Shown piece after piece: positions 848 to 33,344 of a DNA stretch of 40,100 nucleotides. Position 1 is the stretch's first letter. Each line of letters starts with the position of its first letter. Under the pieces are notes generated by a model. The model saw nothing but the letters and a program-made list of their open reading frames with translations, made no database searches and was not told the origin of the DNA. The position numbers and the translations under genes are program-made. Origin of the DNA: an uncultured Elusimicrobiales bacterium (lineage in GTDB: Bacteria; Elusimicrobiota; Elusimicrobia; Elusimicrobiales; Elusimicrobiaceae); contig CALUXH010000078.1 of the NCBI GenBank assembly GCA_944324695.1, positions 1 to 40,100 of the forward strand, written 5' to 3'.

Positions 848-1516
848 TCAGGGCAACCGATAAAAGCTCCATCTCCAAATAGAGCCGGCATACGAAGCCC
901 CAATGACTTTAGTGCAGAAATCGCCCCGTTCCCCCGGGAAAGGAGAAGCGTCGCGTTCCACGCAATACACCTCATCCGGCGTTACTCCCTTATAAGCCGC
1001 GGAAAAAGGAATATATACAAATCCCGCACAGGCATACGGCCCGTCTAAAAACAGATTAAACGCCACGCCGCTGCCTCCACCGTTGGGAGTAGTTAAAGAA
1101 GATTGTACGTTTTCATAATAAACCGTATCCGTAGCAGTTAAATTACAATTCGTGGAAGAAGTGCGTCCTTTTTGGGGCAGCTGTATATCCAGCTCATCAA
1201 ACCGACTGGCATATGCGCCATTGGCCATATAATAAGACTGCTGGGCTTTTTTCAAAGCATCGGCGCGGCTTAACAATTGCACTGATCGAGATTTCCACAC
1301 CGCTTTGGTATATTGCGGCAAAGCGATGGCGGCCAGAATGCCGATAATCAACACCGCCACTAACAATTCAATCAGCGTAAAACCGATCTGTTGGCCGGCA
1401 AGCGGATGGGATTTTAAATGAAATCTTTCCCAAGCGGCTTTATTCATAAAGCCGCCTAAAACGCCTTTGGCGGAGTTTTCCAGCGGAGGGTCATTTTTTT
1501 GATAAATTTTGTGCAT
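848..1516 (-). CDS. Type IV pilin/pseudopilin-like protein with long leader (pilin 1)
   Basis: A 222-residue prepilin-like protein. Class III signal: the cleavage site is G45|FTLIE with the essential Glu at mature +5, followed by the hydrophobic helix [19 protein letters not shown]. The 45-residue leader is the common 22-residue leader of this family (MHKIYQK...GVLGG) plus a 22-residue insertion. The middle carries the family motif [20 protein letters not shown], and the C-terminus has FCTKVIG. An in-frame TTG two codons upstream is a less likely start, because the ATG at 1516 lies in the conserved promoter/palindrome architecture. Likely exported and processed by a prepilin peptidase (none in this window); exact role unknown. 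It is monocistronic and convergent with msrC. Confidence 0.85.
1382..1447 (-). repeat. 66-bp in-frame insertion in pilin leader (copy A)
   Basis: Codons 24-45 of pilin 1 are absent from the short-leader relatives. They separate the family's GG|F site from the real G|FTLIE site. The peptide [22 protein letters not shown] has the same length as the insertion in the pilin at 30503-31177 and shares the core SHPL. Confidence 0.55.
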
Positions 1517-1550
1517 ACGCAAAATTTATCAAAAAAAAAAAACGAGTCAA
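1494..1550 (-). promoter_or_regulatory. Pilin promoter with T12 spacer and start-codon palindrome (copy 1)
   Basis: Minus strand: -35 TTGACT (1545-1550), 16-bp spacer containing T12 (1531-1542), -10 TAAATT (1523-1528, preceded by TGA), six bases, ATG (1514-1516). A palindrome with 13-bp arms occupies 1501-1530: GATAAATTTTGCG, loop TATG, CACAAAATTTATC, one mismatch. It is flanked by A7/T12. The predicted transcript is leaderless. Confidence 0.6.
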
Positions 1551-1572: not shown

Positions 1573-2073
1573 TTACCAATAAGTAAAATGAGACATCCAC
1601 GAATAATACTTTTCCCCCATGGACGCGCATACTTCCCCGTAGAGTTTTGAACCAGATCCGTTACAGAAAAATTTAGCCGGGGCGGGGCAATTGGAATCGT
1701 TTATACCGGAAATGTTTTCAAAACAACGGGAAATACCCGGCCCTGCGCCATAATACATAACTTTATTTTGAAAGAGAGTAAATTCTTTTCCTTTAAAATT
1801 ATCCCAGTTTATATCCAGTTCGTCCTTATTTGTCGTGTAATATCCGTTGGCCATGTAAAAACGCTCTTCGGATTGCTGAATGCTTCTAAGCATAGGTAAA
1901 GCCTGGGCAATACGGGCTTTCATTACCGCCTTTTGATATTGAGGAAAGGCCACCGCCGCCAATATGCCAATAATAAGAACAACCACTAAAAGCTCAATGA
2001 GCGTAAAGCCGTCTAAAACGCTTTTAGCGGAATTTTCCCTGCCGAGGGTTATTTTTTGATAAATTTTGCGCAT
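1573..2073 (-). CDS. Type IV pilin/pseudopilin-like protein (pilin 2)
   Basis: A 166-residue prepilin-like protein. Leader of 22 residues ending VLDG|FTLIE, then the helix [30 protein letters not shown]. The family motif [19 protein letters not shown] follows at about residues 75-95. Four cysteines lie in the C-terminal half, ending with the family-type [11 protein letters not shown]. The ATG at 2073 lies in the loop of the palindrome shared with four other pilins; a TTG two codons upstream is less likely. It lies just upstream of pilin 1 in the same direction, but each has its own promoter. The two could be tandem copies that diverged in their C-terminal halves. Confidence 0.87.
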
Positions 2074-2107
2074 ACGCAAAATTTATCAAAAAAAAAAAAC
2101 AATGCAA
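2052..2107 (-). promoter_or_regulatory. Pilin promoter with T12 spacer and start-codon palindrome (copy 2)
   Basis: -35 TTGCAT (2102-2107), 16-bp spacer with T12 (2088-2099), -10 TAAATT (2080-2085), six bases, ATG (2071-2073). The palindrome is perfect here: 13-bp arms GATAAATTTTGCG / CGCAAAATTTATC at 2058-2087, extended by six T/A pairs on each side, with loop TATG holding the start codon. Confidence 0.62.
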
Positions 2108-4311: not shown

Positions 4312-6871
4312 TGTCCACCCGTTTCTTCCACTCCGCAATTAACTGCAGCGCGCCCATGGGGGTCAGCTTGTCAGGGTCGGTGAGTTTGATTTCCTGCACG
4401 ATGGGCGCGGAAAACAAATCTTTGACCGGGTCTTTTTCGCGCGCGGAAATTTTGGCTCCTTTTTTAGCCTCCAAATCTTTAAGCACCTTGCGCGCGCGCA
4501 CCGTCACCGCCGCGGGCAAGCCCGCTATTTCGGCCACGTGTATGCCATAAGACTGGTCCGCCGCGCCGGGCAAAATCCGGTACAGAAACGCCAGTTTGCT
4601 CTGGCCGAAAGAGTCTTTATATTCTTTGGCCTCCACATGAAAATTTTTGACGCTGGGATATTTGTTTTCCAAATCCACCAGTTCAAAATAATGCGTGGCA
4701 AAAAGCACTTTGGCCCCGCCTTTGGGCTTATGCAAATATTCTACAATAGCCCAGGCGATGGAAATGCCGTCAAACGTGGAAGTGCCGCGGCCCACCTCGT
4801 CCAGCAGAATCAGACTGCGCGGCGTCTGCGAGGCCAGAATATGCGCCGTTTCATTCATTTCCACCATAAAGGTAGAGTTGCCGCGCTGCAGCGCGTCATG
4901 CGCGCCGATGCGCGTCATAATTTTGTCCACCACGCCCACGATGGCTTCCTGCGCGGGCACGAAAGAGCCCATTTGCGCCATAATCACAATCAGCGCGGTT
5001 TGCTTTAAATACACGCTTTTGCCACCCATATTCGGGCCGGTAATCAGCATCAGCTGCGTGTTCACGCCGTCCATGTCCAAATCATTGGGCACAAACGACC
5101 CCGCCGGCAGCAGGGACTCCACAATCGGGTGCCGCCCGCCTTTGTAAGACAAGCCCGTCCCGTCGTTGACGTTCGGGCGGGTGTAGCCGTATTTCATGGC
5201 GGCCAGCGCCAGAGACAGGTATACATCCAATTCCGCCGCCGTCTGCGCAAACTCCTTCAGCGCGGCAATCTGCCCCGCCAGCGTTTTGCGCACCGCGTCA
5301 AACAAGGAGCTTTCCAGGCGCAAAATGCGGCTTTCGGCGTTTAAAATTTTGTTTTCCAGTTCTTTAAGTTCTTCGGTAATATACCGCTCGGCGTTGGTCA
5401 GCGTCTGTTTGCGCGTATAATTATACGGCACCTTGGCGCTGTGGCTTTTGGTCACTTCCAAATAATACCCGTAAATGGAATTGTATCCGGCCTTCATATT
5501 GGGAATGCCGGTGCGTTCGCGCTCGCGCTGGCACAACTCTTCCAACGCTTTTCCGCTGCCGCTGCGCAGGGAACGCAGTTCGTCCAGCTCGGCGTTGTAG
5601 CCCCCGCGAATGATATTGCCGTCGGCTATACGCAGGGGAGGCTCTTCGTTTATGGCTTCATAGAGCAGCTTGGACATTTCCTGCGCGGCGGGATATACCG
5701 CGTCAAAACGTTCCTTCAGATGCGGAGCCACGGTCTGACCGTATTTCTCCAACCAGCGGCGCAAAGGTTCGGCGTTTAACAGCGACCTCCGAAGTCCGCC
5801 CAAATCCCGCGGGGAGGCATTGCCCGCCGCCACGCGCGTCATAATGCGTTCCACATCGGAAATATTTTGCAAAATGGAAGCCAGAGCGCCCAACGCTTCC
5901 TGATTTTTCACCAACCCTTCCACGCAGTCCTGCCGACGACGTATTTCGTCTACGGACAGAGACGGGCGCACAATCCACTCCTTGAGTTTACGGCTGCCAA
6001 AAGAAGTCTTGGTATGATCCAACAAGGCCCACAGACTGCCGGCACGGCCCCCTTCCTGGCTTTTGACCAGCTCCAGCGAGCTGACGGCGTTTTCGTCTAT
6101 CTGCAAAGAGTCGGAAAGCTCCGTATAAGAAGGCACCAGCGTGTCTTTGACGCCGGGCTCCGTGGAAGACACATAGGCCAGCACCTGCAAAGCGCAGGAC
6201 AGCGCCAGCTCTCTGCCGCGCCACATGGCCGCCACGGGCCAAGTGGGCAGGGGGGCTATTTCTCCTTCAAAAACGGGCACTTCCGTCAGCGGCAGCCGGG
6301 CGGGCAGCACCACTTTGTTTTGCAACAGCTGCAGGGTTTGGCCGTCCCCCACGATTTCCGCCGGGTTGACGGCGGCCAGCGCGGCGGCCAAATTGGTAAA
6401 ATTGGAATCGTCCAAATTTTGGCTGGCCCAAAACTGCCCCGTGGACACGTCCACGCAGGCAATCCCCCACCCCCCGCCCTGCGCACGCAGGCAGACCAGG
6501 AAATTAGACTGATTGGCGTCCAGCATGTCATCTTCCATGACGGTGCCGGGCGTAATAACGCGAATGACTTTGCGCTCAAAAAGTTTGCTTTTGTTGTCGG
6601 CAGACGCGCTGATTTGCTCGCAAATGCCGATTTTTTTGCCCGCTTTGAGCAAACGGCCTATATAAGAAGTGGCGGCGTGAAACGGGATACCGCACATGGG
6701 AATGCCGTGGCGCTGCGTCAGCGTCAGGCCCAAAATGGCGCTGACTTCGCGCGCCTGTTCGTCAAACATTTCATAAAAATCGCCCAAACGGAAAAATAAA
6801 ATAATCCCCGGGTACTGATTCTTGATATCGTAATACTGCTTCATCAAAGGGGTATTGTAACTGTTTTGCAT
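4304..6871 (-). CDS. mutS: DNA mismatch recognition ATPase MutS
   Basis: An 855-residue full-length MutS. The N-terminal mismatch-binding domain starts TPLMKQYYDIKNQYPGIILFFRLGDFYEMF, with the Phe-x-Glu motif in FYEMF. The C-terminal ABC ATPase has Walker A GPNMGGKS, Walker B LILLDEVGRGTSTFDG and the His-switch ATHYFEL. It binds mismatches and recruits MutL, whose gene overlaps its stop codon by 8 bases. There is no Shine-Dalgarno: a TGA-TAAAAT extended -10 box ends six bases before the ATG, so the operon mRNA is probably leaderless at mutS. Confidence 0.97.
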   Translation of the reverse strand: MQNSYNTPLMKQYYDIKNQYPGIILFFRLGDFYEMFDEQAREVSAILGLTLTQRHGIPMCGIPFHAATSYIGRLLKAGKKIGICEQISASADNKSKLFERKVIRVITPGTVMEDDMLDANQSNFLVCLRAQGGGWGIACVDVSTGQFWASQNLDDSNFTNLAAALAAVNPAEIVGDGQTLQLLQNKVVLPARLPLTEVPVFEGEIAPLPTWPVAAMWRGRELALSCALQVLAYVSSTEPGVKDTLVPSYTELSDSLQIDENAVSSLELVKSQEGGRAGSLWALLDHTKTSFGSRKLKEWIVRPSLSVDEIRRRQDCVEGLVKNQEALGALASILQNISDVERIMTRVAAGNASPRDLGGLRRSLLNAEPLRRWLEKYGQTVAPHLKERFDAVYPAAQEMSKLLYEAINEEPPLRIADGNIIRGGYNAELDELRSLRSGSGKALEELCQRERERTGIPNMKAGYNSIYGYYLEVTKSHSAKVPYNYTRKQTLTNAERYITEELKELENKILNAESRILRLESSLFDAVRKTLAGQIAALKEFAQTAAELDVYLSLALAAMKYGYTRPNVNDGTGLSYKGGRHPIVESLLPAGSFVPNDLDMDGVNTQLMLITGPNMGGKSVYLKQTALIVIMAQMGSFVPAQEAIVGVVDKIMTRIGAHDALQRGNSTFMVEMNETAHILASQTPRSLILLDEVGRGTSTFDGISIAWAIVEYLHKPKGGAKVLFATHYFELVDLENKYPSVKNFHVEAKEYKDSFGQSKLAFLYRILPGAADQSYGIHVAEIAGLPAAVTVRARKVLKDLEAKKGAKISAREKDPVKDLFSAPIVQEIKLTDPDKLTPMGALQLIAEWKKRVDNE

Positions 6872-11950: not shown

Positions 11951-12442
11951 ATGGCGCGGCGCAAAAGAAAATACACCCAAAAACAGGCCAAATTCTGGAC
12001 CGCCGTACTGGCCGCGGCGGCGCTGGCCGTCATACAACAGACGGGCAAGCCTGCCACGCAGACCTCCGCCCTGCCGGATGCGCAGGCGCTGCAAAACGTA
12101 TCCGTCGCCTCCGTCTATGACGGGGACACCTTTAAAATCAATCTGAACTGTTCGCTGGCCGTGTACTGCGAAAAAGTACCCGTGCGCGTGCTGGGCGTGG
12201 ACTGCCCCGAAATCAAAGGCAAAACCAAACGCGAAAAAGCCCTGGCCCAGAAGGCCAAGGCTTTCACCAAAGCTTTTTTGCAAAACGGCCCCGTTTCCCT
12301 GACAGACTGCTCGCGCGACAAATATTTCCGCCTGCTCTGCGCCGTCACCAACGGACTGGGGCAAAACCTGGCCGAAGAACTCATCAACCGGGATTTAGGC
12401 TACCGCTACGAAGGCGGCAAAAAATCAGACCATTACCGCTGA
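11951..12442 (+). CDS. Thermonuclease-like (SNase) nuclease, membrane-anchored or exported
   Basis: A 163-residue staphylococcal-nuclease-fold protein. The catalytic set is visible: YDGDTF (56-61), R79 and E87 in VRVLGVDCPE, and R127 in DKYFRLL, equivalent to SNase R35, E43 and R87. The helix REKALAQKAKAFTKAFL and the segment GQNLAEELINRDLG also fit. Residues 14-28 form one hydrophobic segment after a very basic start, so the protein is either anchored or secreted; no clean cleavage site is seen. It starts one base after the lipid kinase stop and is the last gene of the cluster. It likely degrades extracellular or periplasmic nucleic acids. Confidence 0.87.
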   Translation: MARRKRKYTQKQAKFWTAVLAAAALAVIQQTGKPATQTSALPDAQALQNVSVASVYDGDTFKINLNCSLAVYCEKVPVRVLGVDCPEIKGKTKREKALAQKAKAFTKAFLQNGPVSLTDCSRDKYFRLLCAVTNGLGQNLAEELINRDLGYRYEGGKKSDHYR

Positions 12443-12465: not shown

Positions 12466-12984
12466 TTAATCTTTATAGCACCAGCCATCCACATCCTTGT
12501 CACTGTCAAAACACTGCCGGTTCCCTGTCAGGGATTTACATATGCCCGCACCCTGTTCATAACAAATCCGGTTAAGCTGTCCTTTCCCGTTAGACATAAT
12601 ACCCAGCTCGTACGCCAGATCTCCTGTGGCAAGAGCCCCCGAACCGGTAATACGCGTGGCCATAGCGAAAAAGCTATTGCCACCATCTGAAGAAGAGAGT
12701 TGAATTTTAAAATTCTTCGTTTGTATTTCTTTGGTAAAGCCGCTGCCGACGCCCGGCAGCTGAATATCCAGCGCGGACATATCATTGCTATATACGCCGT
12801 TACTCAAATAATACAATGTCTGCGCCTTTCCTAACGCCTCCAACAGAGTCATTGCTTCCACCGCACGGGACTTTTCTACTGCTTTCTGATACTGCGGCAC
12901 GGCCACCGCGGCCAGTATGCCGATAATTAAAACAACCACTAACAATTCTATTAAGGTAAATGCGGCGCTTTTCGGGTTTTTCAT
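12466..12984 (-). CDS. Type IV pilin/pseudopilin-like protein, short leader (pilin 3)
   Basis: A 172-residue prepilin-like protein with an 8-residue leader, MKNPKSAA|FTLIE, so Ala rather than Gly is at -1. The helix [32 protein letters not shown] follows, then YYLSNGVYSNDMSALDIQLPG. C-terminal cysteines occur in ICYEQGAGICKSLTGNRQCF and near the end (DGWCYKD). It is convergent with the nuclease gene (23-base gap). Its upstream region keeps a TTGACT box but only 14 bp separate it from the ATG, against 28-29 bp in the other pilins, and no -10 is found. The coding frame is intact; expression is doubtful. Confidence 0.83.
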   Translation of the reverse strand: MKNPKSAAFTLIELLVVVLIIGILAAVAVPQYQKAVEKSRAVEAMTLLEALGKAQTLYYLSNGVYSNDMSALDIQLPGVGSGFTKEIQTKNFKIQLSSSDGGNSFFAMATRITGSGALATGDLAYELGIMSNGKGQLNRICYEQGAGICKSLTGNRQCFDSDKDVDGWCYKD

Positions 12985-13004
12985 GTAAAAAGAAAATGAG
13001 TCAA
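12985..13004 (-). promoter_or_regulatory. Shortened, probably defective pilin promoter
   Basis: Minus-strand TTGACT (12999-13004) is followed by a T/C-rich 14-mer and then the ATG. Compared with the promoter at 25085-25118, about 14 bp covering the -10 box and part of the T tract are missing. Confidence 0.45.
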
Positions 13005-13162
13005 ACCCCAGCGATTAAGTCACAAAAAACACCGACGAAAAAACAACAACGGCAAACGACCTATTTATTAAGCCGTATTTCAACTTATACGCCGCTTTCA
13101 TTTTCATATAAGATAAGATCAAAATCCCAGCGGCAAACCCGGCGCTTGCTTTATGTAATAAC

Positions 13163-13192
13163 GCGGCGCAGGGCGATATGCCCCGCGCCGCA
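13163..13192 (-). terminator. Possible terminator hairpin downstream of purA
   Basis: A 12-bp GC-rich stem (GCGGCGCGGGGC / GCCCTGCGCCGC, one G-T pair) with a 5-nt loop, 25 bases beyond the purA stop. Only a weak T-rich run follows, so terminator function is uncertain. The remainder of 13005-13216 shows no gene. Confidence 0.4.
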
Positions 13193-13216: not shown

Positions 13217-14233
13217 TTATAACACCAGCGTATCTTCCATATCCGCGCCGGTGGACACCAACGCCAGTTTCGGATGCGGATACACCTGGCGGGAAAGCTC
13301 GCGCATGCTTTCCAAAAATTCCTTGGCCTGCGGAGTGAAATCCTCATAGCTCTTAATATGGTCATTGCCCTCGAACATATCAATATGCGTAATGGCTATT
13401 TTGGTGGCGTTGTTAATCATAATCGCGCGCGAAGCCGAACGCTTTTCAAACACGCCCACGCGGCGCAGGCGTTTGCTGACGCTGCCGATTTCATGGCCTT
13501 TGGTATGGTAAATTTCCAAATCTTTTTCATCGGTCATTTCCTTTTCCAGCGGCCCGGGACCCACGCGCGTGATATACGGCTTAAACACTACATACACATC
13601 CCGCACGCTCTTGGGGCCGAGGCCGGCCTCTCCCAGGAAAGTGGACGCGGTGGTATCACGCGAGGTAACAAACGGGTATTCCCCGTGCAGCAAAGACAGT
13701 TTAATACCCTGCGTGCCTTCCAGCAAAATATGCTCCCCTTTGTCCAGCGCGCCGTTAAGCAGCTCCGGCACGTCCTGGATAAATTCCTTCAGCGCGGGCT
13801 CGTCCTTGGCAAACTTTACATTACGCCGCTCAATACGGTCTTTGACGGCCTGCCCCAGCCCGGTGCCCACGCTGCCGATATGCTGCATAAAGTGGCTTGC
13901 GCCTTTTTCGGCGGCGGTTTCTTCGTCCGTAATCAGCACGGCGTACGGATCAATAATCAAACGGTCGGCCGTACCCGTCAGCTGCACTTCTTTGAGCAGC
14001 CACTCGGTTTTGGTGTATGCGCCCGCGCCCAGTACCAATTTGGTAGCGGGATTTAAAAAACCCGACGGGATATTTTTAAGCGTATAGGATTTGCCGTCGG
14101 CCACCACGGTATGCCCCGCATTGGGGCCGCCCACGCGCACGCAGTATTCATAATCGCCTTTATACGACAAATACGCCGAAATCTTTCCTTTCCCTTCATC
14201 GCCGGCCTGACCGCCGCACACAATATCTATCAT
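13217..14233 (-). CDS. purA: Adenylosuccinate synthetase, short archaeal-like form
   Basis: A 338-residue enzyme converting IMP, Asp and GTP to adenylosuccinate, the first step to AMP. Signature GQAGDEGKGK near the N-terminus, then GGPNAGHTVV, IGSVGTGLGQA, LLEGTQGIKLSLLHGEYPFVTSRDTT and KGHEIGSVSKRLRRVG. Typical bacterial PurA is about 430 residues. This length matches the compact archaeal type (Pyrococcus-like), and the C-terminus (YPHPKLALVSTGADMEDTL) is intact, so it is not truncated. I chose ATG 14233: it has a GGAGG site and gives the canonical N-terminus MIDIVCGGQAGDEGKGK. It overlaps the purB stop by ATGA, so the two AMP-pathway enzymes are coupled. Confidence 0.95.
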   Translation of the reverse strand: MIDIVCGGQAGDEGKGKISAYLSYKGDYEYCVRVGGPNAGHTVVADGKSYTLKNIPSGFLNPATKLVLGAGAYTKTEWLLKEVQLTGTADRLIIDPYAVLITDEETAAEKGASHFMQHIGSVGTGLGQAVKDRIERRNVKFAKDEPALKEFIQDVPELLNGALDKGEHILLEGTQGIKLSLLHGEYPFVTSRDTTASTFLGEAGLGPKSVRDVYVVFKPYITRVGPGPLEKEMTDEKDLEIYHTKGHEIGSVSKRLRRVGVFEKRSASRAIMINNATKIAITHIDMFEGNDHIKSYEDFTPQAKEFLESMRELSRQVYPHPKLALVSTGADMEDTLVL

Positions 14234-15624
14234 AATTTTCCTCCCGCCTGCCGCGGAGCAAGCCCCGTATAAGAGCATACATCCAAGGCCAGCAGTTTTT
14301 GTTTGGTTTTTTTGTCCGTGTTTAAACTTTGTATAAATATTTTCAAATCTTCCGCCGTTACGGCGCGCCCGCGCGTAAAGGCTTTCATTTTTTCATACGC
14401 CCCATCAACGCCGGCAGCGCGCAACACCGTTTGGTAGGCTTCCGCCAAAACTTCGGGATGAGCCAAAAGTTCAGCTTTCGCGGCGCACGCGTCAAAATCC
14501 GTTTTACGCAGCCCTTTCAGCAGGGACTGATACGCCAGCAGACAATGCCCCAGCCCCACGGCCATGTTGCGCAGCACCGTGGAATCGGACAAATCGCGCT
14601 GCAAACGCGAAAGCGGCAGTTTCTCGCTGAAAAAGGACAGCAGGGTGTTGGCCAGGGCCAAATTGCCTTCTGCATTTTCAAAATCTATGGGATTTACCTT
14701 TTGCGGCATGGTGGAGGAACCCACCTCCCCCGCCACGGTTTTTTGCTTTACCAGCCCCGCCGAGATATACCGCCACATATCCTGGCAAAGCCCCAGCAAA
14801 ATAATGTTCACGCGGCGCAAAGCGTCAAACAGTTCCGCATAACTGTCGCGATTGTCCACCTGAGTGGAAACGGGGCTGACAAACAATTTGTTTTTGCGTC
14901 CCTTGCTCAGCTTCCCCGCCAACTTGCGCGCCGCGCGCGGCCAGTTTGCCTTTGGAAAGGCCGCCATATGCGCATTATAAGAGCCTACCGCGCCGCCGGC
15001 CTTGCAGGAAATTTCCTGTTTCTTTAACTGCTCCAGCTGACGGACCAGACGCGTTTCAAATACTTTAAGTTCTTTGCCAAATGTAGTCGGCACCGCAGGC
15101 TGGCCGTGCGTGCGCGCCAGCATGACCCCGCGCGCATATTTGCGGGAGCGGGCGTTTAAATCTTTGCGCAAATCTTCCAGCGCGGGTACGATGACCCGTC
15201 CCAACGCGTCCGACAAAATCTGCGCATACGCCAGGCTGTTTATGTCTTCGCTGGTCAGGGCAAAATGCACCCACGCCGCCCGGCAGGCAAAGCCGTTTTC
15301 GGTCAATTTATCCGAAATAAAATATTCCACGGCTTTAACGTCGTGATTGGTGGCGGGACGGCCGTTACGGCCTTTTTTTTCTATATCATGTAAAATCTGC
15401 AAGTCCGCATCCGCCAGTGCGGGCAGTTTTTCCAGCAGGGTTTTTTCTTTGGCGGACAGCGGTTTGAAACCGGGCAGTTTCAACTCTGCCAGCGTCAAAA
15501 GCCAGCAGGCTTCTGCACGCACGCGGGCGCGCGCAAAAGCCCCCGCACCGGCCGTTCGGGCCAGCGGGGCCATGCTTTCTTTATATCGCCCGTCCAGCGG
15601 GCTGATGACGTCCCATTCACACAT
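14230..15624 (-). CDS. purB: Adenylosuccinate lyase
   Basis: A 464-residue lyase of the fumarase/aspartase superfamily that cleaves SAICAR and adenylosuccinate in purine synthesis. It begins like the E. coli-type enzyme (ISPLDGRYKES). It carries TNHDVKAVEYFI, HFALTSEDINSLAY, ARTHGQPAVPTTFGKE and the signature loop GEVGSSTMPQKVNPIDFENAEGN. It is the first gene of a purB-purA pair with an ATGA overlap. There is no Shine-Dalgarno; a TGC-TACAAT box (15633-15638) lies eight bases upstream of the ATG, suggesting a leaderless or nearly leaderless mRNA. Confidence 0.96.
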   Translation of the reverse strand: MCEWDVISPLDGRYKESMAPLARTAGAGAFARARVRAEACWLLTLAELKLPGFKPLSAKEKTLLEKLPALADADLQILHDIEKKGRNGRPATNHDVKAVEYFISDKLTENGFACRAAWVHFALTSEDINSLAYAQILSDALGRVIVPALEDLRKDLNARSRKYARGVMLARTHGQPAVPTTFGKELKVFETRLVRQLEQLKKQEISCKAGGAVGSYNAHMAAFPKANWPRAARKLAGKLSKGRKNKLFVSPVSTQVDNRDSYAELFDALRRVNIILLGLCQDMWRYISAGLVKQKTVAGEVGSSTMPQKVNPIDFENAEGNLALANTLLSFFSEKLPLSRLQRDLSDSTVLRNMAVGLGHCLLAYQSLLKGLRKTDFDACAAKAELLAHPEVLAEAYQTVLRAAGVDGAYEKMKAFTRGRAVTAEDLKIFIQSLNTDKKTKQKLLALDVCSYTGLAPRQAGGKL

Positions 15625-24568: not shown

Positions 24569-25084
24569 TTAATTCAGGATATAGGTATTTGTGCCGGGAC
24601 CGTACCAGCCGCTTCCGGCCAGCTTTCCCTGGCTTTTGCATACACGTTCCCAGGCATGGCCTTGCGCGGCGGTGCAATAAACGGCGTCGTCGCGGGTATC
24701 AAACCAAAAATAATAAGTCAGAGCCCGATCTTCGGTGCGGACTTCCACTTTTTGTTCGCCGGCGCGCAAGATGTCAACACACACCCCCTGTTCCACACGC
24801 TTCCCTTTCCGCAAGGCCGTTTGGGGGGAAGCAGAATCTGTCATAAATCCCGCGGGAAGCGCAACGGCCAGGGCGGACAGGTCCGTGGAATAGCGGCCCG
24901 TTTCCAAGTAATATATCTTCTGTGCGTCTCGGAGTTTTTCCCCCAAAAGCAGCATTTCCGCGGCCCTGCTCTTTAAAACGGCGGTTCGGTATTGCGGCAC
25001 GGCAATGGCAGCCAATATACCGATAATTAAAACGACTACTAACAACTCTATTAGGGTAAATGCGGCACTTTTTTCACTCTTCAT
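24569..25084 (-). CDS. Type IV pilin/pseudopilin-like protein, short leader (pilin 4)
   Basis: A 171-residue prepilin-like protein. Leader MKSEKSAA|FTLIE with Ala at -1, as in pilin 3. The helix [31 protein letters not shown] follows, then the family motif YYLETGRYSTDLSALAVALPAG. The cysteine-bearing end contains VYCTAAQGHAWERVCKSQGKLAGSGWYGPG. It has its own T12-spacer promoter but no start-codon palindrome, so leader type and promoter type go together. It converges with cysK. Exported pilin or pseudopilin subunit; function unknown. Confidence 0.86.
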   Translation of the reverse strand: MKSEKSAAFTLIELLVVVLIIGILAAIAVPQYRTAVLKSRAAEMLLLGEKLRDAQKIYYLETGRYSTDLSALAVALPAGFMTDSASPQTALRKGKRVEQGVCVDILRAGEQKVEVRTEDRALTYYFWFDTRDDAVYCTAAQGHAWERVCKSQGKLAGSGWYGPGTNTYILN

Positions 25085-25118
25085 GCAAAAAGTGTATCAA
25101 AAAAAAAAAACGGGTCAA
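25085..25118 (-). promoter_or_regulatory. Pilin promoter with T12 spacer, no palindrome (copy 6)
   Basis: -35 TTGACC (25113-25118), 16-bp spacer with T12 (25099-25110), -10 TACACT (25091-25096, preceded by TGA), six bases, ATG (25082-25084). Same geometry as the palindromic copies, with a better -10. Confidence 0.65.
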
Positions 25119-25196: not shown

Positions 25197-25736
25197 TTAA
25201 GGCAAGTCATAAACACGGTTATTATTGGCAGTTCCCGTCAGTTTCCCGCCCAAAGACAGACAAACTTTATTAGCCAGGGAGGAGGTGTCGGCGGCCAAGC
25301 AGCGGCGCTGCCCGGTGCGGGGATTATCCGAATAAATTAAAATATTGCCCATATTGCAATATGCCGTAGCAACGGGGGATCCGTCCGAATTTTTCTGATC
25401 GCTCAGCCAGCAGCTGTAATTGCCCACCATGCACCGGCGGCCGTTGCTTAAAATGCTTTCGCAGCCCATATCCACATCCAACGTTTCAAAATCCGTGGCA
25501 TATTTTCCGTTGGCCATATAATAACGCTGGCTGGCCTGTTTCATGGCCGTCACCGTTACGATCATCTGCGTAACGCGGGATTTCATCACCGCCACCTGAT
25601 ACTGCGGCACGGCAATGGCGGCCAATATACCGATAATCAAAACCACCACCAAAAGCTCTATGAGCGTAAAACCTCTTAAAACGCTTTTAGCGGGGTTTTT
25701 GCCGCGGGGGGTCATTTTTTGATAAATTTTGCCCAT
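25197..25736 (-). CDS. Type IV pilin/pseudopilin-like protein (pilin 5)
   Basis: A 179-residue prepilin-like protein. The 22-residue leader MGKIYQK...SVLRG|FTLIE has Gly at -1. The helix [31 protein letters not shown] is followed by YYMANGKYATDFETLDVDMG. Several cysteines follow (CESI, RRCMVGNYSCW, AYCNMG, RRCLAAD), then the family C-terminal VCLSLGGKLTG. It is divergent from the secreted-protein gene at 25847. Its promoter has 13 rather than 12 T residues, the only length variant seen in the window. Confidence 0.87.
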   Translation of the reverse strand: MGKIYQKMTPRGKNPAKSVLRGFTLIELLVVVLIIGILAAIAVPQYQVAVMKSRVTQMIVTVTAMKQASQRYYMANGKYATDFETLDVDMGCESILSNGRRCMVGNYSCWLSDQKNSDGSPVATAYCNMGNILIYSDNPRTGQRRCLAADTSSLANKVCLSLGGKLTGTANNNRVYDLP

Positions 25737-25771
25737 ACGCAAAATTTATCAAAAAAAAAAAAACAATGCAA
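25715..25771 (-). promoter_or_regulatory. Pilin promoter with T13 spacer and start-codon palindrome (copy 3)
   Basis: -35 TTGCAT (25766-25771), 17-bp spacer with T13 (25751-25763), -10 TAAATT (25743-25748), six bases, ATG (25734-25736). Palindrome core 25721-25750 with one mismatch next to the loop. Confidence 0.6.
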
Positions 25772-30502: not shown

Positions 30503-31177
30503 TTAGTTTAGCGCATACCCGCTACACACCCCGCCTATAGCATTGACGCAACTCTGCCATTGGCCTGCTACGCTGGTATCCAGGACGCCGCCCATACTTT
30601 TGCAGGCCTTAACTGCCGCTTTATTTGTATATACTGCCAGGCAATATATTTTCCCCGGCAGCTTGGAATGATCAAAATACATCGCATAACCTACTTTCCC
30701 TTTTTTGTCCAATCCTTGTACATATACCCTCATACCGTCTGCAGAGTCAGCCAAAACAAAACCATAACGTTGGTCGCCGCAGACGGCGCCTCTATTGTCT
30801 CTGTTTATTACACAATTGCCCGGCAGGGAGACACCCAGACTTCCCATTACGTCTGCCATCGTATAAAACGGATAATGCCCGTGGGTCAGATAATACATCT
30901 CCGCTCCTTCCTTCAGATTTTTAACGATGGGCATCAGGGTGGCCAGGCGGCTTTTGGCCACGGCGGTCTGATACTGCGGAAGTGCAATAGCCGCCAATAT
31001 GCCGATAATTAAGACGACTACAAGAAGTTCTATCAGCGTAAAACCGGCCCGCTTGAAAGAAAGAGGATGAGATTCTGAGTAAAAACTCCTCAGAATGACA
31101 TGGTAAATAAAACCGCCTAAAACGCTTTTAAAACGGTTTTTATATTGCAGATACATTTTTTGATAAATTTTGCTCAT
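30503..31177 (-). CDS. Type IV pilin/pseudopilin-like protein with long leader (pilin 6)
   Basis: A 224-residue prepilin-like protein. The 45-residue leader is the common 22-residue MSKIYQK...SVLGG unit plus a 22-residue insertion ending KRAG|FTLIE. The helix [32 protein letters not shown] follows, then YYLTHGHYPFYTMADVMGSLGVSLPG. Cysteines are paired in the C-terminal half, with the family-type ACKSMGGVLDTS. It is convergent with the hydrogenase gene and shares its terminator. The ATG at 31177 lies in the promoter palindrome. Confidence 0.86.
   Translation of the reverse strand: MSKIYQKMYLQYKNRFKSVLGGFIYHVILRSFYSESHPLSFKRAGFTLIELLVVVLIIGILAAIALPQYQTAVAKSRLATLMPIVKNLKEGAEMYYLTHGHYPFYTMADVMGSLGVSLPGNCVINRDNRGAVCGDQRYGFVLADSADGMRVYVQGLDKKGKVGYAMYFDHSKLPGKIYCLAVYTNKAAVKACKSMGGVLDTSVAGQWQSCVNAIGGVCSGYALN
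31043..31108 (-). repeat. 66-bp in-frame insertion in pilin leader (copy B) with palindrome
   Basis: Codons 24-45 of pilin 6. It contains an 8-bp inverted repeat ATTCTGAG/CTCAGAAT (31072-31079 and 31089-31096, 9-nt loop). Same length and position as the insertion at 1382-1447, with the shared peptide core SHPL. Confidence 0.6.
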
Positions 31178-31211
31178 ATGCAAAATTTATCAAAAAAAAA
31201 AAACAATGCAA
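31156..31211 (-). promoter_or_regulatory. Pilin promoter with T12 spacer and start-codon palindrome (copy 4)
   Basis: -35 TTGCAT (31206-31211), 16-bp spacer with T12 (31192-31203), -10 TAAATT (31184-31189), six bases, ATG (31175-31177). Palindrome arms of 12 bp (31162-31191) with a 6-nt loop containing the ATG. Confidence 0.6.
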
Positions 31212-32778: not shown

Positions 32779-32790
32779 AAGGCGGTTTTT
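32766..32790. terminator. Bidirectional terminator between ybeY and pilin 7
   Basis: Stem CCGCC/GGCGG with loop TAAAA, extended by A5/T5 on both sides. It begins inside the last codons of ybeY, and also ends the pilin transcript from the other strand. Confidence 0.8.
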
Positions 32791-33310
32791 AAAATTCATA
32801 CAAACCATCAGCATTTAATTTGCCAAACATTGCGCATATTGTTTTGCCTTTATTCGAATATGCCCGACAGACCATACGGCCATCTTTTAATTTTCCGATT
32901 AAATAATATTGCTCTCTAGGGAAACGACTGCAGACCGCCAAAAATTCCCCCCATATGGATCCTTCAGCAGGACGGGTGGGACGGCAAATAAAATCTTCTG
33001 TCTCAAACCCTGGCACATAATAAGTGGCCGGTGTTCCCGGGAAGGAAATATCTAATTTGCCAATATCGGCCGCATATTCCCCGTTAGCCATAAAATAACG
33101 TTCTTCCGCATCTGCAATTGCCCGAACCAAAATAGTAATCCGACCGGCACGGGTTTTTTCCACCGCCTTGTCATATTTTGAAATAGCCACAGCAGTTAAA
33201 ACACCAATAATCAACACCACGACTAATAATTCTATTAGCGTAAACCCGCCAAATCCCGTTTTAGAGCGGTTTTTTTCTACGTTCTGCTTCTTTTGATAAA
33301 TTTTGTTCAT
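32789..33310 (-). CDS. Type IV pilin/pseudopilin-like protein (pilin 7)
   Basis: A 173-residue prepilin-like protein. The 22-residue leader MNKIYQK...TGFGG|FTLIE has Gly at -1. The helix [31 protein letters not shown] is a slightly diverged version: Lys replaces the usual Gln in PQY, reading ISKY. Then come YFMANGEYAADIGKLDISFPG and the C-terminal ICAMFGKLNADG. Its palindrome differs from the other copies by paired changes on both arms. It is convergent with ybeY. Confidence 0.86.
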   Translation of the reverse strand: MNKIYQKKQNVEKNRSKTGFGGFTLIELLVVVLIIGVLTAVAISKYDKAVEKTRAGRITILVRAIADAEERYFMANGEYAADIGKLDISFPGTPATYYVPGFETEDFICRPTRPAEGSIWGEFLAVCSRFPREQYYLIGKLKDGRMVCRAYSNKGKTICAMFGKLNADGLYEF

Positions 33311-33344
33311 AAACAAAATTTATCAAAAAAAAAAAACGATGCAA
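33291..33344 (-). promoter_or_regulatory. Pilin promoter with T12 spacer and start-codon palindrome (copy 5)
   Basis: -35 TTGCAT (33339-33344), 16-bp spacer with T12 (33325-33336), -10 TAAATT (33317-33322), six bases, ATG (33308-33310). The perfect 13-bp arms here read GATAAATTTTGTT / AACAAAATTTATC (33295-33324): two inner pairs differ from copy 2 and both sides changed together. Confidence 0.62.

What the first reader, a model, noticed from the sequence alone, without database searches (positions are those of the whole stretch)
12985..13004. One pilin copy has lost 14 bp including its -10 box
The gene at 12466-12984 keeps TTGACT but has 14 bp to the ATG instead of 28-29, and no -10-like hexamer at a usable distance. 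Its closest relative in leader type (24569-25084) has the full T12 and TACACT. The coding frame is still open, so loss may be recent, or the copy may be a silent donor for recombination with expressed copies.
Basis: seen in the sequence. Interest (0 to 1): 0.5.

Follow-up and report, generated by a model that had tools for sequence, protein, structure and literature searches.

The report
Pilin gene with a deleted promoter
One of roughly a hundred scattered pilus-protein genes in a gut bacterium has lost a 14-base piece of its on-switch while its protein code looks intact, which probably makes it a recently silenced copy in a fast-changing family of pilus genes.

Summary
Gene 12466-12984 (minus strand) keeps TTGACT but has 14 bp to its ATG instead of 28; the alignment with sister copies shows one 14-column gap covering eight T's and most of the -10. 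Of 17 G000 pilins picked by coding start alone, 16 have the promoter core; this one does not. No hexamer at a usable distance resembles a -10. The short form occurs once in 66 genomes of the genus. The genome is a gut Elusimicrobiaceae metagenome assembly near Candidatus Avelusimicrobium, with 118 prepilin-motif places, 90 with a TTG-N5-T(~12)-GATA-like core. The ORF looks intact, but no orthologue was found; at this site one close relative has no pilin and another has a different one. Best reading: recent promoter deletion in a newly gained copy, probably silent. A silent-donor role is possible (promoter-leader modules differ in 8 of 36 classifiable ortholog pairs) but no conversion tract involving this copy was found. 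Silence is inferred; there are no RNA data.

The parts
12466..12984 (-). type IV pilin ORF, 172 aa, no Shine-Dalgarno seen before the ATG, N-methylation motif, C-terminal Cys pair; no orthologue found
   Evidence: (C149 invariant, C141 nearly invariant)
12985..13004 (-). truncated promoter: TTGACT (13004-12999) plus 14 bases; 14 bp missing relative to sister copies, including eight T's and most of the -10
13005..13080 (-). upstream stretch that aligns loosely with class II copies (30 of 70 aligned bases differ from their consensus; other rows 10-39), pointing to a class II promoter module as origin
13162..13192 (-). 13-pair GC-rich hairpin after purA, present with changed pairs in L083; possible purA terminator
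   Evidence: not listed by the consensus terminator scan
13217..14278 (-). purA, co-directional upstream gene
11951..12442 (+). SNase-like nuclease, convergent downstream neighbour
24569..25118 (-). intact class II sister copy with its promoter (25118-25085)
848..1550 (-). class III pilin with T12 promoter (core 1550-1527)
1573..2107 (-). class III pilin with T12 promoter (core 2107-2084)
25197..25771 (-). class III pilin with T13 promoter (core 25771-25747)
30503..31211 (-). class III pilin with T12 promoter; its 94%-identical counterpart at the same place in G079 has a class I promoter and leader
32789..33344 (-). class III pilin with T12 promoter; no pilin at the same place in G079

Best explanation
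Gene 12466-12984 is a lineage-specific member of a very large, dispersed type IV pilin family in a gut Elusimicrobiaceae bacterium. Most of these genes carry their own promoter with a T tract of about 12 between -35 and -10. In class II copies only 6 bases separate the -10 from the ATG, so the mRNA should be leaderless (inferred). In this copy a 14-bp deletion inside the T-rich promoter removed most of the T tract and of the -10, so the gene should no longer start its own transcript. Read-through from purA may be limited by a hairpin and would reach a start codon with no Shine-Dalgarno sequence. The intact ORF is best explained by a recent loss in a recently acquired copy. Shown: the deletion, its uniqueness in the genomes searched, the open and typical ORF, promoter cores on comparable sister copies, no orthologue found. 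Inferred: sigma-70-type recognition, leaderless initiation, silence, recency.
For: One 14-column gap against sister copies; 16 of 17 G000 genes with the same coding start have the promoter core, this one not. Best -10 match at spacings 13-21 is 3 of 6; the only intergenic candidate reported is 8 of 12; the promoter scan lists no minus-strand site between purA and the pilin. Short form at 1 place in 66 genomes. In-frame codon-usage score at or above 97 of 110 pilins, itself included; pilin fold, mean pLDDT 82, best PDB matches 5vxx and 1ay2, Neisseria pilins, TM-scores 0.45-0.54. G079 has 171 bp where the window has 779 bp between nuclease and purA; L083 has another pilin with an intact T-tract promoter there. 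Body DNA: only 41- and 66-bp matches in 2 of 65 other genus genomes. Promoter loss with open frame recurs in G079 by different deletions (C1:118301, C15:698), and neither body has more than a partial match (about 100 bp, 73-74%) in G000. Hairpin after purA.
Against: No expression data. One metagenome-assembled genome (83% complete, 2.8% contamination); reads cannot be inspected. The promoter model is a consensus inference; by eye class III copies fit sigma-70 hexamers poorly, so the elements RNA polymerase really needs are unproven. The pair C68:3448 / G079 C13:4303 lacks a properly spaced -35 yet has dN/dS 0.05, so a non-standard promoter need not mean a dead gene. The hairpin after purA has a weak U tail and is not listed by the terminator scan. 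No orthologue, so recency cannot be measured.
Confidence: 0.66

Rival explanations
1. Silent reservoir: the copy persists as a pilin body without promoter that can be re-expressed, or donate sequence, by recombination at the conserved FTLIELL-coding stretch with a copy that has a promoter.
For: Promoter-leader modules and bodies part company in evolution: 8 of 36 reciprocal-best body pairs between G000 and G079 with both ends classed I, II or III differ in class; C10:12678 and C55:7889 in one genome have 93%-identical bodies and different modules; window gene 30503-31183 looks like a fusion of a tandem pair still present in G079.
Against: No conversion tract found for this copy: matches to other bodies are 70% over 114 bp at best, next to the conserved N-terminal stretch, and at most 29 columns past body position 125. 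It keeps its own N-terminal coding region, unlike gonococcal pilS cassettes (recalled). Among genes with the same coding start, copies without the core are rare (1 of 17 in G000, 1 of 20 in G079).
Confidence: 0.14
2. Still expressed: an unrecognised promoter upstream, read-through from purA, or the remaining TTGACT with a non-standard -10 drives it.
For: Typical coding statistics; C68:3448 pair under purifying selection without canonical spacing; one 8-of-12 sigma-70-like candidate upstream; the terminator scan lists no terminator between purA and the pilin.
Against: Strong hairpin between purA and the pilin, also in L083; no Shine-Dalgarno before the ATG; no hexamer above 3 of 6 at spacings 13-21.
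Confidence: 0.15
3. Assembly artefact: the deletion is a mis-assembly around a homopolymer in a metagenome contig.
For: Single metagenome-assembled genome, T tracts are error-prone, reads not available.
Against: The missing segment includes six bases that are not part of the T run; the promoter also carries substitutions (3 in 20 aligned bases); 90 of 118 places in the same assembly have a readable core; the contig is collinear with G079 apart from pilin gains and losses.
Confidence: 0.05

Closest known systems
Neisseria porA and opc promoters (titles seen in the reference list of PMC5084427, passages only)
   Same: length variation in or between the -35 and -10 region changes expression of a surface protein
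   Different: single genes there, about 90 cores here, T tract; in the present copy the tract is broken so it can hardly switch by slippage
Chlamydia trachomatis CT533/lpxC promoter (PMC4514472, passages read)
   Same: run of 12 A (T on the other strand) between predicted -35 and -10, lengths 12 and 11 mixed in one population
   Different: single housekeeping gene, not a pilin family
Neisseria pilE/pilS antigenic variation (recalled)
   Same: many pilin variants in one genome, recombination involving the conserved N-terminal coding part
   Different: here bodies are complete genes, dispersed, mostly with their own promoter; the present copy has a full N-terminus; no conversion tract found
Bordetella pertussis fim genes with poly-C promoters and the promoterless fimA remnant (recalled)
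   Same: homopolymer-regulated fimbrial genes with one copy that lost its promoter
   Different: unrelated fimbriae, few genes, C tract

Membership tests
type IV pilin (prepilin) family | N-terminal methylation/cleavage motif above curated cut-off | tested here: met
   PF07963 32.2 bits, cut-off 21.2; TIGR02532 24.1 bits, cut-off 16.3
type IV pilin (prepilin) family | long N-terminal helix packed on a beta sheet | tested here: met
   model helix 5-62 and five strands, pLDDT 82; top PDB hits are Neisseria pilins
class II T-tract promoter pilins of this genome | -35 hexamer of the TTGAC(C/T) type | tested here: met
   TTGACT at 13004-12999
class II T-tract promoter pilins of this genome | uninterrupted T tract of about 12, TACACT-like -10, 28 nt from -35 to ATG | tested here: not met
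   14-column gap, T4-C-T5 left
phase-variable homopolymer-spacer promoter (this copy) | homopolymer of 8 or more between -35 and -10 | tested here: not met
   longest run between TTGACT and ATG is T5
phase-variable homopolymer-spacer promoter (sister copies) | tract length varies between near-identical alleles | tested here: met
   T length differs in 14 of 31 same-class pairs as parsed, two of them (C7:15084, C62:9138) ambiguous; C101:266 T12 against G079 C20:10857 T13 with 438 of 438 body bases identical
phase-variable homopolymer-spacer promoter (sister copies) | expression changes with tract length | not testable with these tools
   needs RNA or reporter data
silent pilin cassette (pilS-like) | no promoter | tested here: inconclusive
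   no good consensus promoter found, one 8-of-12 candidate; transcription not measured
silent pilin cassette (pilS-like) | lacks the conserved N-terminal coding part (recalled criterion) | tested here: not met
   full N-terminus present
silent pilin cassette (pilS-like) | conversion tracts shared with an expressed locus | tested here: not met
   none found among the G000 pilin bodies compared

The most novel reading that the evidence does not exclude
Gut Elusimicrobiaceae run a genome-wide, combinatorial pilin system: about a hundred dispersed pilin bodies, most behind one of a few interchangeable promoter-leader modules whose T12 spacer flickers by slippage, with modules swapped between bodies by recombination at the FTLIELL-coding stretch. 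The copy 12466-12984 is then a body in a switched-off state that can be re-armed by acquiring a new module.
Probability: 0.25. Interest if true: 0.78.

Novelty: new variant of a known kind. Interest (0 to 1): 0.45.

Why it matters
On its own this is a natural promoter knock-out in one gene. Its value is as an internal control for its family: it bears on which bases of a promoter module found about 90 times matter, and it shows a body that has outlived its promoter. The family itself (over a hundred prepilin-motif places in 1.4 Mb, T-tract cores nearly always in front of pilins, modules that part from bodies, rapid turnover between species) makes the question of how gut Elusimicrobiota diversify their pili directly testable.

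Tried and rejected
Considered and rejected: (1) that the short form is a separate promoter class: the pattern is found once in 66 genomes. (2) That the coding frame is decaying: GC by codon position and in-frame codon-usage score are typical. (3) That an orthologue would date the loss: none by protein in 40 relatives (best 53% identity, in G007, with a different upstream region), none by body DNA beyond 41 and 66 bp in 65 genus genomes; the genome-contig scan with the C-terminal part found no relative. (4) That the T-tract core is a general promoter: 76 of 80 pattern hits in the genome lie just upstream of catalogued prepilin-motif genes; of the other four, two are pilin starts cut by contig ends, one is an orphan module without a pilin, one precedes a non-pilin ORF with a signal-peptide-like start. 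(5) sigma-28 and sigma-54 promoter types were considered from memory and do not seem to fit; not tested. Literature: searches (Elusimicrobium, Elusimicrobi-, Elusimicrobium minutum with pilin, pilin genes, pili or type IV pil-; Avelusimicrobium alone); in the rows listed (20 of 200, 15 of 5,424, 10 of 10, 7 of 7, 2 of 2) no title or abstract start describes this pilin family; the papers were not read for it apart from passages of PMC8035907. The E. minutum genome paper of 2009 is recalled only. Searches looked for homopolymer promoters and pilin paralogues.

Counting notes. Class counts depend on patterns that differ a little; the call is given with each count. The 118 places are not all distinct whole genes: C24:5412 and C41:13479 share 127 of 127 compared bases at contig ends and C48:21120 and C94:20040 are 99% identical over 267 bases. 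In one search nine pairs differ among classes I, II and III; I dropped C68:3448/G079 C13:4303 as misclassified after reading both, leaving 8 of 36; pairs with an end classed IIb, IV, x or none are not in the 36, among them C23:3073/G079 C12:45307, whose G079 copy is cut by the contig end but ends like class I. dN/dS was computed for 24 of the 58 pairs, picked by hand. Of the 80 loci, the first 20 were inspected at the purA site; L089 ends there and tells nothing.

Full report
What is there. On the minus strand the pilin gene 12466-12984 is preceded by TTGACT (13004-12999), 14 bases and the ATG. The intact copy 24569-25084 has 28 bases between its -35 hexamer and the ATG. The window is contig C78 of a metagenome-assembled genome of 1.41 Mb in 112 contigs, 83% complete. 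A purA search in named genomes gives neighbours 98-99% identical, one of them Candidatus Avelusimicrobium excrementipullorum (98%), of a poultry-gut genus placed in the Elusimicrobiaceae (PMC8035907, passages).

The family. The genome has 118 places with the prepilin motif PF07963, a few of them overlapping contig ends. Reading upstream of all 118, 90 have a TTG-N5-T-tract-GATA-like core; the implied -35/-10 spacing is 16 bp in 74, 15 in 6, 17 in 5 and 14 in 5. The other 28 include genes clustered on contig C59 beside a pilus ATPase, other genes with unrelated upstream regions, contig-cut genes, a few degenerate cores (for example C68:3448, C79:17247) and the present copy. Three main 5' modules exist: class I (GATACCCTATAC and a 5' stretch of about 65-75 bases ending in a Shine-Dalgarno-like run), class II (GATACACTTTTCGCATGAARAGTG, 6 bases between -10 and ATG) and class III (mostly TTGCATTG, T12, GATAAATTTTGCGTATG, then the second arm of an inverted repeat). 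A pattern for the core hits 80 places in the genome, 76 directly upstream of catalogued genes, and occurs in 54 of 66 genomes of the genus, with 0 or 1 hit per strand to the reversed pattern. The pattern is loose, and a few listed hits are not true cores.

The deletion. With 22 class II rows the gene aligns with a single 14-column gap, covering eight T's and GATACA of the consensus. Those rows were chosen by a pattern that needs tract and -10, so the better control is: of 17 G000 genes chosen by coding start alone, 16 have the core and only this gene lacks it; in G079 19 of 20, the exception (C5:41629) having an altered -35 and an interrupted tract. Outside the gap this copy has 3 differences in 20 aligned promoter bases (others 0 to 8 in 34) and 14 in the first 90 coding bases (others 4 to 15, one outlier 32), so it is at the divergent end but not out of range. 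No hexamer at spacings 13 to 21 from TTGACT matches TATAAT in more than 3 of 6 positions; the one alternative reported between purA and the pilin is an 8-of-12 site, and the consensus scanner lists none there on this strand. The short form is found at this one place in 66 genomes, up to 3 mismatches.

The protein. Pfam and NCBIfam give the prepilin motif above cut-off. In an alignment with 19 pilins from related loci the two conserved C-terminal cysteines are in place. The predicted structure is an ordinary pilin, helix 5-62 and a small sheet, mean pLDDT 82, the last residues poorly predicted, closest in the PDB to Neisseria pilins with modest TM-scores of 0.45-0.54. Codon statistics are typical of the family.

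The locus in relatives. G079, whose mutS DNA is 92% identical, is collinear with the window apart from pilin gains and losses, and between the nuclease and purA it has 171 bp where the window has 779 bp; the pilin is missing (sequences). L083 has purA, a similar hairpin and then a different, class I pilin with an intact T-tract promoter. In G001 and G020 the similarity ends after the nuclease and the fetched stretches hold no pilin match; other genes follow in G001, G020 was not looked at further. Of the first 20 purA loci inspected only L083 has a pilin next to purA (L089 is cut there). The body DNA has only 41- and 66-bp matches in 2 of the 65 other genus genomes. Such lineage-specific copies are common: 42 of 114 G000 pilin bodies have no match in G079 at E 1e-10.

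Could it be read anyway? purA reads towards the pilin. A 13-pair hairpin at 13192-13162 is kept in L083 with changed pairs. It may be a terminator, but its U-rich tail is weak and the terminator scan did not list it. Class II genes show no Shine-Dalgarno sequence, and the constant 6 bases between -10 and ATG suggest leaderless mRNA; a read-through transcript would then start translation poorly. This is inference.

Is the family exchanging sequence? Between G000 and G079, 58 reciprocal-best pairs of pilin bodies were found. Among those with both modules classed I, II or III, 28 share the class and 8 differ, one misclassified pair dropped. Within G000, C10:12678 (class III) and C55:7889 (class I) have 93% identical bodies. 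In the window, 30503-31183 has a body 94% identical to the G079 gene at the same place, but its leader matches the class III leader of the next G079 pilin upstream; a recombination between tandem pilins at the conserved FTLIELL stretch would produce this. For the present copy no exchange was detected: the best matches to other bodies (70% over 114 bp, 69% over 93 bp) adjoin the conserved N-terminal part, and past body position 125 none exceeds 29 columns.

Are promoter losses recurrent? In G079, C1:118301 keeps the class III -10 and palindrome but lacks the -35 and the T tract, and C15:698 keeps the end of a class I leader without the core; both have open frames and only partial matches of about 100 bp in G000. 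In G000 there is also the reverse case, a class III-like module with no pilin behind it (C44:407). Against a simple reading, the pair C68:3448 and G079 C13:4303 lacks a properly placed -35 and yet has dN/dS 0.05. Over 24 hand-picked pairs of the 58 the median is 0.13, range 0.03 to 1.36, the highest from a pair with almost no synonymous change. So pilin bodies are generally selected, and an odd promoter can go with selection.

T tract. Lengths centre on 12 in both genomes; spacings of 14 or less are found in 5 of 90 cores in G000 and 14 of 67 in G079, as parsed. Same-class pairs differ in length in 14 of 31 cases as parsed, two of them ambiguous; one pair has 438 identical body bases and T12 against T13. 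This fits slippage, as proposed for the Chlamydia lpxC promoter with 12 or 11 A's between -35 and -10 (PMC4514472, passages) and as titles in the reference list of PMC5084427 state for Neisseria porA and opc. Whether expression follows tract length here is untested.

Conclusion. The most likely account is a recent deletion that disabled the promoter of a newly acquired pilin copy. Its possible role as a reservoir gains general support from module swapping but none specific to it. The more interesting object is the family.

Noticed in passing
class III modules of G000, e.g. window 1527-1550, 2084-2107, 25747-25771, 31188-31211, 33321-33344 and the bases after them: Class III promoters carry an inverted repeat whose left arm contains the -10 and whose right arm lies in the coding start (GATAAATTTT...AAAATTTATC). 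Compensated variants exist in G000, G079 or other loci (GATAGATTTT/AAAATCTATC, GATACATTTT/AAAATGTATC, GCTAAATTTT/AAAATTTAGC); 32 of 93 T8-G sites in the G000 loci scanned have the repeat against 56 of 18567 random positions. Function unknown, perhaps an operator.
   Followed up: partly
window 30503-31183 against G079 C3:194985 and its upstream neighbour: Same body, different promoter-leader module at the same chromosomal place; looks like fusion of a tandem pilin pair by recombination at the conserved N-terminal stretch.
   Followed up: yes
class III leaders, e.g. window 31045-31105; also L083 about 6440-6540: A palindromic insert (GTCATTCTGAG...CTCAGAATCTC type) of about 60 bases sits in frame in the prepilin leader of 12 of 37 class III-like genes by a loose motif, and a similar repeat lies between genes in L083; resembles palindromic elements that insert into coding sequence.
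   Followed up: partly
L227 (G000 C44:407-428): Orphan class III-like promoter module with no pilin behind it, the mirror image of the promoterless pilin.
   Followed up: partly
L226 (G000 C32:20415-20435): A T9 version of the core precedes a non-pilin ORF with a signal-peptide-like start; possibly a co-regulated secreted protein.
   Followed up: no
G079 contigs C1, C3, C4: Prepilin-motif genes are strongly co-oriented: 14 of 14 on C1, 16 of 16 on C3, 12 of 13 on C4.
   Followed up: no
G001 against G000 and G079: G001 and G079 both have 92% mutS DNA identity to G000 but differ greatly in hits to the T-tract core pattern: 8 in G001, 70 in G079, 80 in G000.
   Followed up: no
L230 (G000 C59:8173-9324): The best T2SSE (PilB-like) gene of this assembly has one in-frame TAG near its end; the best matches of the four relatives checked have no stop inside. 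Assembly error or a real defect was not resolved.
   Followed up: partly
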